The notes below the pieces were generated by a model, which saw only the letters and a list, made by a program, of their open reading frames with translations, did not search any database and was not told the DNA's origin. Below are positions 14,948 to 31,590 of a stretch of 64,000 nt of DNA, piece after piece. Numbering within the stretch: position 1 is the first letter of the stretch; each line of letters opens with the position of its first letter. The stretch comes from Hemileia vastatrix (lineage: Eukaryota > Basidiomycota > Pucciniomycetes > Pucciniales > Zaghouaniaceae), in contig JASXTE010000016.1 in assembly GCA_030280995.1 (NCBI GenBank), forward strand, positions 9,695,001-9,759,000. The letters run 5' to 3'. The position numbers and the translations under genes are program-made.

Positions 14948-14964
14948 TAGGGGGTATCAATGTT
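14948..14964 (+). repeat. Left terminal inverted repeat of the Harbinger element
   Basis: TAGGGGGTATCAATGTT, perfectly complementary to 31574-31590. The flank is TTAA on the left and ATAT on the right; if the TIR is taken to begin at AGGGGG, both sides carry AAT. Confidence 0.85.
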
Positions 14965-15030
14965 CAGGGATCCACAATTAGGGATCAGGAATTTTTTTTC
15001 CCAGGATCAGACATTATTAATTGCGGAAGA

Positions 15031-15066
15031 TTCTTATCCACTAGCCCTGGGGCTAGTGGATAAGAA
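15031..15066. repeat. Perfect 17-bp hairpin near the left TIR
   Basis: Two perfectly complementary 17-nt arms (15031-15047 and 15050-15066) are separated by a 2-nt loop. The sequence lies about 80 bp inside the TIR and could be a subterminal transposase-binding or cruciform-forming site. A partly similar TTTTTATCCACAATTAAT stretch lies near the right TIR at about 31538-31555. Confidence 0.8.
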
Positions 15067-15328
15067 ATCCACGATAATGCATTATCCCGCCTCTTATACC
15101 CCAATTTCCATTCCTAATTCCTGATCCCAAACTCATCTCATCCATGATGGATTTTCAAGAAAGTCACATGACTCATAATTGCTGATGCCATCCTTAAGTC
15201 TTTCCTCACTGTATGCTACTTAATTTTGGTGGAAAACACTTAAGTTTTTTTTCTATCTACACACCCGAACTGCACATTTGGCGGTGAATTCCCACTTCCC
15301 TCATCACATAACCCTTCCACTGGCAACA

Positions 15329-16591
15329 ATGAAGCACCTCTCTACTAGGAAGCTACTTCACTCAACAATGAATGCTATCACTTTTCTTTTAGTTCTTTAC
15401 TATAGATCTGACTCTGATTTGGAAGATGCTTTAGCTTATATGTGTTTTCTTTCCAAAAAGTGTTAAATCATCACCAGGGGTCCAAATCTTTATCATGATC
15501 GCTGATATGATCTGGCCTCCATTCTCAACATTCCTCATTTAAACTTCACACAACTTTTTAGAACTTCTCCCAAATCTTTCTTCAAACTTTATCAACTCAT
15601 TTCTGAACATCCCATCTTCCATAACAATTCTCATCACAAACAGCTTAATCCTGCCATCCAACTTGCTGTTTCTCTATGTTGCTTTGGCTCAAATGGAAAT
15701 GGTGCTGCCGTATGACATTTGGATAATCTCTTTAACATAGGATATGATACCATGATATTATACACCAAGCGCTGTATGATTGCTATCCTTTCCCTCAAGT
15801 CTCAAACTCTTGCTTGGCCAACTCCAGAACAGCGACTTAAATCCTCTCAAGTAATGCAAGCTGGAGGTTTCCCTGGCTGTATAGGTTTTGTTGATGGCAC
15901 AGCCATCCCTTTGAGTCAAAATCCTGCTCATGATGGCAACCATTATTTTGATTGCAAAAAAAGGTTTCTTAAAAATCTTTTCCAAGTTCTCATCTTTCAC
16001 AATCTAACTTTTTATCTTCTTTCTAGATACTCTATTGCCATTCAACTTGTATGCAATGTCAATAAAAAATTTATTGCTTTTCACAGTGGCTGCCCTGGAT
16101 CATGTCATGACTCTTCTGTCTTCCAAAGAATGAGGATTTCTCAATCCCCTGACTCATACTTTGAAGAATCTCAGTACCTCTTTGCAGACTCAGCATAAGA
16201 AAGTGGAAAGTACATTATACCTGCATTCTGTGGTGCAAATTCAGAAAATGACCCCAAAACTGCTTTTAATTATCACCTTTCACAATCAAGAGTACAAATT
16301 GAACGTGCTATAGGTATTTTAAAGGGACGATTTTCTAGTCGTTGGGAGCTCAGAATCCAATTTCAAAAAAAATTGGAGATCAAAACTGCAAATCATTGGA
16401 TCTTGACTTGTGTAATACTCCACAATATTCTAGCTGACTTAAAGGATGAGTGGAATGATCTTTATGAAGAAGAGGATCCTGAACCACCACCGGCACTCCC
16501 CTCCCTTGATTCACAAATCATTCAATCAACCGGCATAGGCTCCATTGTAATGCCAATTACTCTCCAACATTTCACTTCACAATGCTTTTAA
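15329..16591 (+). pseudogene. Harbinger-type DDE transposase, broken
   Basis: The start is the ATG at 15329 (MKHLST), a peptide that recurs in the inverted fragment near 63640. Catalytic signature of the DDE_Tnp_4 family: first Asp in FVDGTAI (about 15887), second Asp in FADSA (about 16188), Glu in QIERAIGILKGRF (about 16300), then a helix-rich tail ending in an acidic, Pro-rich region. A 63-nt intron (15964-16026, with CTAAC near 16004 and TTTCTAG acceptor) separates the first Asp region from the rest. In-frame stops occur at about 15463, 15514, 15712 and 16196, the last replacing the Tyr of the expected DSAY motif. It would have cut and joined the element ends together with its SANT-like partner; it is now inactive. 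Confidence 0.85.
15964..16026 (+). other. Intron in the transposase pseudogene
   Basis: GTTTCT donor, CTAAC branch-like site, TTTCTAG acceptor, 63 nt. Splicing joins the block after FVDGTAI to YSIAIQLVCN in the correct frame. Confidence 0.6.
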
Positions 16592-17090
16592 TTTTTAATT
16601 TTTATGTTTTCATACTTTCCAAGTGTCCTCTTTGTGTACTTTATTCACTTGGTTTTGTATTTTGGTTTGTTGCATATTCATTTTTTTTTTGAATTTACAG
16701 TGAATATCTTTTTTTTGGATGGCTCTTTGGTTTTCTTTCACCAGCTCATCATGAAATTGCATATTTTCTTATATCTCATATTTTGTTAGTGATTTTTTTT
16801 CATTCATCACTCATATCCTTTTCATCCTCTCCTTAAACACCCCTCAGTTTTTTTTTATTGCATTTTTTTTCTCAACTCAACTCACCAGGTAGGTCATTTT
16901 TTTTTTCTTTTTTCTTGGTTTTTTATTTGCTAATCATTATTTTTTATTCTTTCATTTTTTTTGTTTTTTTTGTTTTTTTTGTAAGTGCTTCATTTATTTT
17001 TGTTCTAGGGTAAACTAATTTTTTTTGTTTTTTTCTCTTTTTTCTCTTTTTTTTTATTTTTTTTTCTCTCCTTCACCCCTCTTATCATCC
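16592..17090. other. T-rich spacer inside the Harbinger element
   Basis: Oligo-T runs on the plus strand without a credible coding frame. It leads into the C-rich arm of the foldback. Nothing else is seen. Confidence 0.5.
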
Positions 17091-29130: not shown

Positions 29131-29264
29131 CTATACCTGTGGAAAGTCTCAAACATATGTTTCTCGACTTGGTCTGCATTTTGGCTTGAGGGATTGTAAT
29201 TACTTTAAACTAGGGAAATTAATATATATTAGATATTATTTAATAATTTATGTAATAATATTAA

Positions 29265-29715
29265 ATTTAGATGACTTCCACCCCTTACTTCAATAAAATG
29301 CAGGGGGGGTATTGCCAAATTTTCAAATCTGACATGTGAAATTGATGACTTAGAAAAATTTTGGTGATACCTACCCCTTGCTTCAATAAAATGCAGGGGA
29401 GAGTACTGCCAATTTTTTAAAACAGATATAGAATTTTTTTGACTTGTAAATTTTTTGGTGAAATTTTTTTGGTGATACCCTTCCCTTACTTCAATAAAAT
29501 CCACGGGGGTTTTTGCCAAAATTTCTTATAAGACTTGTGAAATTCTTGACATGTAAGAATTTTTGGGATACCGGTAAAATGCAGGGGGCAGTAAAGCCAA
29601 ATTTTAATATAAGACTTTCAAGATTCATGACATGAAAGAATTTTTGTGATACCCACCCCTTACTTCAAAAAAAAAGAGGGGTGGGGGATTGTCAAATTTT
29701 CAAAGGAGACTTGAA
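29265..29715. repeat. Imperfect tandem repeat of ~90-110 bp in the Harbinger element
   Basis: About five units share the order GATACC-CACCCCTTACTTCAATAAAATGCAGGGGG, then TGCCAAATTTT, then GACTTGTGAAATTC and GACATGTAAGAATTTT. The units differ by substitutions and small gaps. A long minus-strand frame over the first units is a by-product of the repeat. The block lies between the Gypsy-B target site and the 3' end of the SANT-like gene. Confidence 0.8.
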
Positions 29716-31186
29716 ATTTTTTTTTTAAAAATAATATTTAACATTAAAATACAAAATTTCAAGAAATACAGAAAATAATTGTAAAACTTATGTACAATTA
29801 AATATGAACACATGAAGTGTGAAAGAAATAAAAGAAAGTAGTAAATAAAAAATATCATTAAATGTTCTATTTCTTCAACAGATTTGTTTGCTTTAATGAA
29901 TTTGATCAAGAAATCTTTCTTTTTAGAACTTTCTTGAAGATCATGCTTATACTTCATCTGTTTCATTAAGTTTTGATGCTCGAGTGTTTTTTCCTCTTTT
30001 TTTGATTTTTCAATACTAAGAGTTAACTCAAACTTCTTCTCCTCCAAATCTTGGACCCAATCATCCTTCTGTAAGAAGATCTTGTACTTCCTCTCTTCCA
30101 AATCTTGTACTCTGTCATCCCTCCTTAAAGAGAGCTCGTATTTCTTCTTTTCAAAGCTTAGAGTCTCTTTAGCAATTTCTACTTGTTCTAGATTGAGAAT
30201 AAAAATTAACATAAAGTAGAAGAAAAGCAGAGGAAAGTAATAAAAGGCATGATATCACTTACCAGCATCACGTTTCTCTAAAAACTGTTCCATTGAAGAA
30301 AAAGGTGTTTGTGATGAAGTATCATATTTTCGTCTTCTTTAGGAGTGGAAATTTAGACTACTTGAAGCCCTTTGCTTTTTGTTAAACATAGCATTTTCCT
30401 CCTCATCATTGTCACTAGCTTCAGACTCAGTTGCTTGAGGATCCTGGGTTTGTTCATCAGTCTTTTTAGAAATAAGAAAAAGATAAGTAAATAAAAATAG
30501 AAAAGATTAGATAAAAGAAAAAAGAAACAGACCTGAGTTTGATTTGGTTGGGTTAAATCACCTATAGGATCTACAGAAAAGCTATCTAGATATGTCTCAT
30601 TCAAATGAGGGGAGGCTTGAGTGGAGGAAGAGGATGGGAAAAGATTCGCTTTGACATCATGTTTGGAGATAGGATCTTCACCATCCAACATTTTTACAGG
30701 ATTAACATCAGCTCGCTCTCCAAAAATTGCATCCATCTCTTTAAATTAAGGACATAAAGTTTCAAGGTTATTGTCTATGGATTTTATGCCCTTAGCTATA
30801 TTGTTGTCGGTAACCCCAAAACCAGTGGAAGATGAAAGAGCCTTTGCCTTCTTGTATTTTGCTGGGTAATGCTTGAATTGCTCAGACATCTGTTTAGGCA
30901 AAAGATCAATCCTTCCCTTGGTCTTATTCCGTAATTCATTTGCCATTAGAAGATAGCCATTATTTTTTGATGCGGCGGGCCGTCCTACTTTAGTGGCATA
31001 CTCAGTACCAAAACAAGAATCATAGTTAGATTTGGATTTCAGCCAGTTGATAAGAATGAGTTGGTCATCTTTTTTTAATTGAAAGGTCTTTGATTTCTTG
31101 GCTGAGCGGGTGAAAGAGGAAGTAGTGGGAATTGAAGAACTACTGGGTGATGGCTTCCTTTGAGAAGATCTAGGATGACGAGGCAT
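29700..31186 (-). pseudogene. SANT/trihelix-like, coiled-coil partner gene of the Harbinger element
   Basis: The start is ATG 31186 (MPRHPRS). Residues about 25-60 are Ser-rich and basic. A trihelix/SANT-like DNA-binding block follows (DQLILINWLKSKSNYDSCFG through KGRIDLLPKQMSEQFKHYPAKYKKA), then a conserved linker with MDAIFGERA, an acidic segment, and a long charged coiled coil (EKKKYELSLRRDDRVQDLEE) of about 90 residues. Two introns fit: 30462-30532 (71 nt) and 30188-30262 (75 nt, GTAAGTG donor). In-frame stops occur at about 30746 and 30337. In PIF/Harbinger systems such a protein binds DNA and helps bring the transposase to the nucleus and to the TIRs; that role is inferred here from position and domain type. 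The exact 3' end is unsure. Confidence 0.7.
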
Positions 31187-31222
31187 GTTATTATAAATGA
31201 AGATGAAAAGGATCAGAAACAA

Positions 31223-31573
31223 GCAGATGAGATAGCGAGATGAAAAGGAGCAGAATCAAATAGATGAAATGGGGAGAAATTCTGAGCGGATAGAATGAAC
31301 AGGATCGGATGAGAATGGAAGTGCGCAGCAAGGTAGAAGGCATATCCAGGGAGTAGTCCAAGATGTGGTTATGGCAGAAAGTAGGTCAAGATGTGGTTAT
31401 GACAGAAGGTTGTCCAAGATGTGGTTATGAAAAATTGAGTAGAAAAATGTCGGATAAGAGGTGAAAATTGACACGTAAAGTGTCTAATAACCCAATTATT
31501 AGCAAAAATAATTGCAGAAGATAATTGGGGTATAAGGATTTTTATCCACAATTAATTTAATTGCGGATCGGTC
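31223..31573. other. Subterminal region of the Harbinger element
   Basis: Non-coding. It has GATGAGAATGG-type purine-rich stretches and repeated AAGATGTGGTTATG segments (three copies between about 31360 and 31430), and it may hold the promoter of the minus-strand gene. It ends at the right TIR. Confidence 0.5.
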
Positions 31574-31590
31574 AACATTGATACCCCCTA
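31574..31590 (-). repeat. Right terminal inverted repeat of the Harbinger element
   Basis: AACATTGATACCCCCTA, a perfect complement of 14948-14964. Confidence 0.85.

What the first reader, a model, noticed from the sequence alone, without database searches (positions are those of the whole stretch)
14948..31590. A PIF/Harbinger-like transposon that carries a TET/JBP-like dioxygenase gene
Seen: matching 17-bp TIRs rejoin one LTR of Gypsy-C, so the limits are firm. Between them are a DDE transposase, a SANT/trihelix-like partner and, on the transposase strand, a 2OG-Fe(II) oxygenase pseudogene with HxD...H ligands and its own intron. Known: basidiomycete TET/JBP expansions have been linked to KDZ transposons; I am not aware of a Harbinger link. 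Inference: a cut-and-paste element may have carried a 5-methylcytosine oxidase, either to relieve silencing of its own DNA or as captured cargo.
Basis: partly seen in the sequence, partly recalled or inferred. Interest (0 to 1): 0.87.

Follow-up and report, generated by a model that had tools for sequence, protein, structure and literature searches.

The report
Dead transposon carrying a TET-like gene
This is a broken cut-and-paste transposon, probably from a rust fungus, that carries a gene for a TET-like enzyme which may erase DNA methylation marks; it is real, but transposons of this type were already described in 2025.

Summary
Identical 15-bp inverted ends next to TA (17 bp counting TA) bound 14948-31590, and without the element the flanks read through as one old Gypsy LTR. 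Inside are a DDE_Tnp_4 transposase (two pieces, E 6e-9 and 7.9e-9), a PF20515 Tet-like 2OG-Fe(II) oxygenase on the same strand (E 2.3e-23) and a third gene on the other strand. All three frames contain stops. A younger Gypsy sits inside. No second pair of inverted ends around the oxygenase exceeds chance, so it most likely belongs to this transposon. The 'SANT/trihelix' label found no support in Pfam, PDB or fold searches, though these were weak tests. The claimed novelty fails: Kojima 2025 (PMC12730594) reports fifteen TET-bearing Harbinger families with TA target duplications in six rust species, names the lineage PHISTA, and notes a third protein without Myb/SANT. The window element agrees in the features I could test; the TA duplication itself stays ambiguous and no transposase tree was made. 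Best filed as a decayed PHISTA member. Recurrence could not be tested: the window's genome was never reachable.

The parts
14948..14964 (+). Left end: TA (14948-14949) + 15-bp TIR GGGGGTATCAATGTT
   Evidence: one search score 47 vs shuffle maximum 34
31574..31590 (-). Right end: 15-bp TIR + TA (31589-31590)
15031..15066 (.). 36-bp palindrome close to the left end
   Evidence: 94.4% self-complementary
15329..16591 (+). Transposase pseudogene, DDE_Tnp_4 (PIF/Harbinger type); in the frame read, stops at 15464, 15503, 15713 and 16196 before the last one (some could lie in introns)
   Evidence: homologs P0006-P0012
17097..17661 (.). C-rich then G-rich foldback (large imperfect inverted repeat) between transposase and oxygenase
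18491..19789 (+). Tet-like 2OG-Fe(II) oxygenase pseudogene (PF20515); Ser/Lys-rich N-terminus; probable intron 19102-19160; open piece 19262-19786 with HxD...H
19947..29130 (+). Younger Gypsy LTR retrotransposon inserted in the element, downstream of the oxygenase stop codon; TSD CTATA at 19942-19946 and 29131-29135; LTRs 99.8% identical
29700..31186 (-). Third gene (pseudogene): open N-terminal piece 30749-31186, stop at 30746-30748, later piece 30356-30745 and a Glu/Lys-rich stretch within 29700-30254 that looks like a coiled coil (by eye, no predictor run); no Pfam family
13529..14947 (-). Left flank: old Gypsy, LTR from about 14000 to 14947, internal part before that
   Evidence: LTR edge read
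31591..31901 (-). Right flank: continuation of the same old LTR up to its outer edge
   Evidence: edge read

Best explanation
A decayed copy of a TET-carrying Harbinger-superfamily DNA transposon of the PHISTA type (Kojima 2025), most likely in a rust fungus. SHOWN: matching ends, TA next to both, insertion into an older LTR, a DDE_Tnp_4 transposase, a PF20515 Tet-like oxygenase between the transposase and a third gene, stops in all three, and a young Gypsy nested later. INFERRED: when alive, the transposase cut and pasted the element at TA sites; the oxygenase oxidised 5-methylcytosine in the element's DNA and so eased silencing or reduced methylation-driven mutation; the third protein assisted transposition in an unknown way. 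This copy cannot do so any more.
For: Ends and TA; flanks read through as one LTR; transposase and oxygenase families; all 5 oxygenase homologs found carry PF20515 and 2 of 5 are named Puccinia proteins; HxD...H conserved in 6 of 6 aligned sequences; 2 of 7 transposase homologs are named Puccinia sorghi proteins; no internal inverted ends around the oxygenase above chance (score 24, reached by 15 of 200 shuffles); gene set and TA match the published PHISTA description.
Against: No second full copy was seen: none of 10 transposase, oxygenase and third-gene pieces found another place in the window, and the only relative is a fragment without transposase core. TA versus TAATA is unresolved. No transposase tree was made. 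The oxygenase piece gave a poor structure model (pLDDT 43.7) and no PDB fold match at E<=0.001 or PDB sequence match at E<=1. CpG in the element is depleted (0.21 and 0.34 of expectation) about as in the window overall (0.28), so this copy shows no trace of protection from methylation-driven decay; being dead, it is a weak test.
Confidence: 0.83

Rival explanations
1. The oxygenase belongs to another transposon (such as KDZ, hAT7, IS3EU, EnSpm or Helitron) nested inside a plain Harbinger element.
For: In rust fungi related oxygenases ride on seven transposon lineages (PMC12730594 abstract), and a large foldback of unclear origin lies between transposase and oxygenase.
Against: The best inverted match between the two flanks of the oxygenase is at chance level (24; 15 of 200 shuffles as high), while the same search finds the outer ends at 47. 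No CCRTA, the published right end of IS3EU, lies right of the oxygenase in the stretch searched. The published gene set (transposase, oxygenase, third protein) is the one seen here, and the paper found no ends belonging to the oxygenase genes themselves. A decayed element or a Helitron without inverted ends would escape this test.
Confidence: 0.1
2. The oxygenase was passive cargo: a gene caught by this element, of no use to the transposon.
For: The frames of this copy hold stops, no intact copy could be examined, and CpG shows no protection.
Against: Fifteen TET-carrying Harbinger families in six rust species and the paper's statement that the coding regions of these genes are mostly not disrupted speak for a conserved role; the HxD...H residues are kept here.
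Confidence: 0.15
3. A canonical PIF/Harbinger (Nuwa-like) element with a Myb/SANT partner and 3-bp target duplication, which caught the oxygenase independently of PHISTA.
For: The third protein is modelled as all-helical, with low confidence (pLDDT 55.2). A 3-bp AAT repeat flanks the element if its end is taken as AGGGGG (read).
Against: No Myb/SANT match in Pfam at E<=10, where HMMER's filters drop most weak matches, no PDB sequence match at E<=10, no fold match at E<=0.001. Beside GGGGG/CCCCC the 3-bp flanks differ, ATA and TAA.
Confidence: 0.12

Closest known systems
PHISTA: TET-carrying Harbinger families of Pucciniales (Kojima 2025, Biology 14:1741, PMC12730594)
   Same: Harbinger-type DDE transposase, Tet-like oxygenase, third protein without recognised Myb/SANT domain, TA next to the ends
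Nuwa / canonical PIF-Harbinger
   Same: DDE transposase of the same superfamily and a further gene
   Different: Nuwa families make 3-bp duplications and encode a Myb/SANT protein (PMC12730594); the latter was not found here, the former is not clearly present
KDZ (Kyakuja, Dileera, Zisupton) elements with TET/JBP genes
   Same: A Tet/JBP-family oxygenase riding on a DNA transposon
   Different: Transposase family (DDE_Tnp_4 here), and 8-bp duplications in Zisupton and the Dileera example

Membership tests
PHISTA | Transposase of the PIF/Harbinger (DDE_Tnp_4) superfamily | tested here: met
   Two ORF pieces, E 6e-9 and 7.9e-9, above the curated cut-off; that DDE_Tnp_4 is the Harbinger-type domain is recalled
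PHISTA | Transposase groups phylogenetically with PHISTA rather than Nuwa | not tested
   No PHISTA reference sequences at hand; 7 homologs found, covering 23-58% of the query
PHISTA | TA target-site duplication | tested here: inconclusive
   TA at both ends, but TAATA is equally possible from one copy
PHISTA | PU-type Tet/JBP oxygenase | tested here: inconclusive
   PF20515 at 2.3e-23 with HxD...H; 40-48% identity to 5 homologs, 2 named Puccinia. PU type is inferred from HxD and the Puccinia relatives; no tree was made
PHISTA | Third protein lacking Myb/SANT | tested here: met
   No Myb/SANT family, no PDB sequence or fold match; absence of a hit for a broken, diverged protein is weak
Nuwa / canonical PIF-Harbinger | 3-bp duplication | tested here: inconclusive
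   ATA versus TAA beside GGGGG/CCCCC; an AAT repeat appears only if the end is taken as AGGGGG (read)
Nuwa / canonical PIF-Harbinger | Myb/SANT protein | tested here: not met
   weak tests on a broken protein
Tet-like 2OG-Fe(II) oxygenases (PF20515) | Profile match above the curated cut-off and HxD...H residues | tested here: met
   83.7 bits against a cut-off of 27, covering profile positions 85-211 of 211
Tet-like 2OG-Fe(II) oxygenases (PF20515) | 5-methylcytosine oxidation | not testable with these tools
   PMC12730594 says that the function of these transposon genes is not experimentally validated

The most novel reading that the evidence does not exclude
The third protein is a strongly diverged Myb/SANT-like DNA-binding partner that sequence profiles miss; PHISTA would then be an ordinary two-gene Harbinger lineage that gained an oxygenase, correcting the published argument for separating it from Nuwa, and the partner could guide the oxygenase to the element's own DNA.
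Probability: 0.25. Interest if true: 0.5.

Novelty: new member of a known kind. Interest (0 to 1): 0.3.

Why it matters
It supports, from one window with firm insertion limits, the published idea that TET-like methylation erasers travel inside cut-and-paste transposons of rust fungi. It does not add a new kind. It would matter more if intact copies allowed a test of whether the oxygenase demethylates its own element.

Tried and rejected
Rejected: a separate nested transposon with inverted ends for the oxygenase. A first version of that test was flawed because masked letters were scored as matches; one search repeats it correctly. The structure models of the oxygenase piece (pLDDT 43.7) and of the third protein's first piece (pLDDT 55.2) are too poor to interpret; their PDB fold searches gave 112 and 2 matches at E<=10, none at E<=0.001. 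The weak oxygenase list includes some 2OG oxygenases such as AlkB and PHD2 at E 1 or more, on which I build nothing. PDB sequence searches with the oxygenase ORF and its alignment: 0 matches at E<=1; with the third-protein alignment 0 at E<=10; one transposase piece gave 6 chance-level matches. The scan of viral contigs for oxygenase relatives confirmed none of 40 pattern matches. NCBIfam gave nothing above its cut-offs for 4 proteins. A PHISTA-like fragment at the right edge of the window (63897 down to 63044) keeps 424 bp at 79% of the left part and 447 columns at 68% of the stretch after the transposase, without the transposase core; it does not tell whether the family carries the oxygenase.

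Full report
What is there. Beyond 17 bp the inverted similarity continues to 33 columns with 4 mismatches, and the ends score 47 against a maximum of 34 in 200 shuffles. The flanks belong to one old Gypsy LTR: joined at TA, they align to LTR copies of the window in single hits that run across the join (71.4-71.5% over 424-427 columns); in a multiple alignment the part right of the join agrees at 206-207 of 275 and the part left of it at 278 of 442 positions. Two of the three LTR copies compared are the near-identical pair of one element. The divergence is too high to tell a TA from a TAATA duplication.

Genes. The transposase (15329-16591, +) matches DDE_Tnp_4 in two ORF pieces (E 6e-9 and 7.9e-9) and holds stops at 15464, 15503, 15713 and 16196 in the frame read; some of these could fall in introns. 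The oxygenase (18491-19789, +) matches PF20515, 'Tet-like 2OG-Fe(II) oxygenase superfamily', at 2.3e-23 in its last ORF piece; the shorter pieces before it matched nothing above a curated cut-off. H54, D56 and H136 of the last piece are invariant in the six aligned sequences; that HxD/E and a downstream H bind iron in this family is stated in PMC12730594, and the assignment to these positions is mine. A probable intron at 19102-19160 joins two frames. The gene appears broken by a change of frame near 18757 and by stops at 18864, 18999 and 19259; no homolog covers the first part, so the frame change is inferred. The third gene runs on the other strand from 31186 with a stop at 30746-30748; its first piece has one homolog at 60% identity over 48% of the query and no Pfam match except a chance-level DUF3438.

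Does the oxygenase belong to the transposon? I compared the stretch left of it (16595-18494) with the stretch right of it (19787-19946 plus 29131-30260) for inverted ends. The best score, 24, was reached by 15 of 200 shuffles, while the same procedure recovered the outer ends at 47. There is no sign of a second element with inverted ends; a Helitron or a very decayed element is not excluded.

Order of events (inferred). An old Gypsy LTR received this transposon; later a Gypsy with a CTATA target duplication and two differences between its 1143-bp LTRs landed 157 bp past the oxygenase stop codon.

What is known. Five of my paper searches listed PMC12730594. I read its abstract and outline, sections 3.1 and 3.4, the first of two parts of the Discussion and the figure-legend section, and found passages (12 of 29 places shown; 7 of 7); not its supplements and not sections 3.2 and 3.3 in full. 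It reports fifteen TET-carrying Harbinger families with TA duplications in six Pucciniales, including Austropuccinia psidii, encoding a third protein without Myb/SANT, designates the lineage PHISTA, and argues for escape from methylation-based silencing. The window element agrees in the features that I could test, with the TA duplication and the oxygenase type left inconclusive and the transposase tree not made. The idea that a Harbinger link is unknown therefore fails.

Host. Unnamed. Homologs named as Puccinia and a GC content of 32.4% suggest a rust; passages of PMC8063080 give 33.8% GC, Gypsy dominance and CpG depletion for A. psidii. This is a guess, not a test.

Results against. The element's CpG content is 0.21 and 0.34 of expectation in its two parts, against 0.28 for the window, so no protection by the oxygenase is visible in this copy. 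None of 10 gene pieces found a second place in the window, no complete second copy was found, and the own-genome search never ran.

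Noticed in passing
19947-29130, chiefly 21762-27949; related Gypsy at 650-5683: A young Gypsy (LTRs differ at 2 of 1143 positions) is almost free of CpG in its coding frames: 2 CpG against 112 expected in 21762-25685 and 0 against 55 in 26045-27949, with 0 CGN among 69 arginine codons; 18 against 189 in the whole internal part, while each LTR keeps 12 against about 17. A related Gypsy at 650-5683 has 10 against 138; a retrotransposon stretch at 36.5-44.7 kb is much less depleted (0.61). 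As the copy is young, the depletion looks inherited by the lineage rather than made after insertion. Passages of PMC8063080 report CpG depletion growing with element age in A. psidii, which this copy does not fit simply.
   Followed up: partly
63914-63044 (-): A PHISTA-like fragment: left part and post-transposase stretch without the transposase core, with an end-like motif (TAGGGAGTATCAAAGTT) in inverted orientation beside it.
   Followed up: partly
17097-17661: Large C-rich/G-rich foldback with 31-33 bp tandem units between transposase and oxygenase.
   Followed up: no
61302-61979 (+): PIF1-like helicase piece (E 5.2e-15), possibly a Helitron remnant (inference).
   Followed up: no
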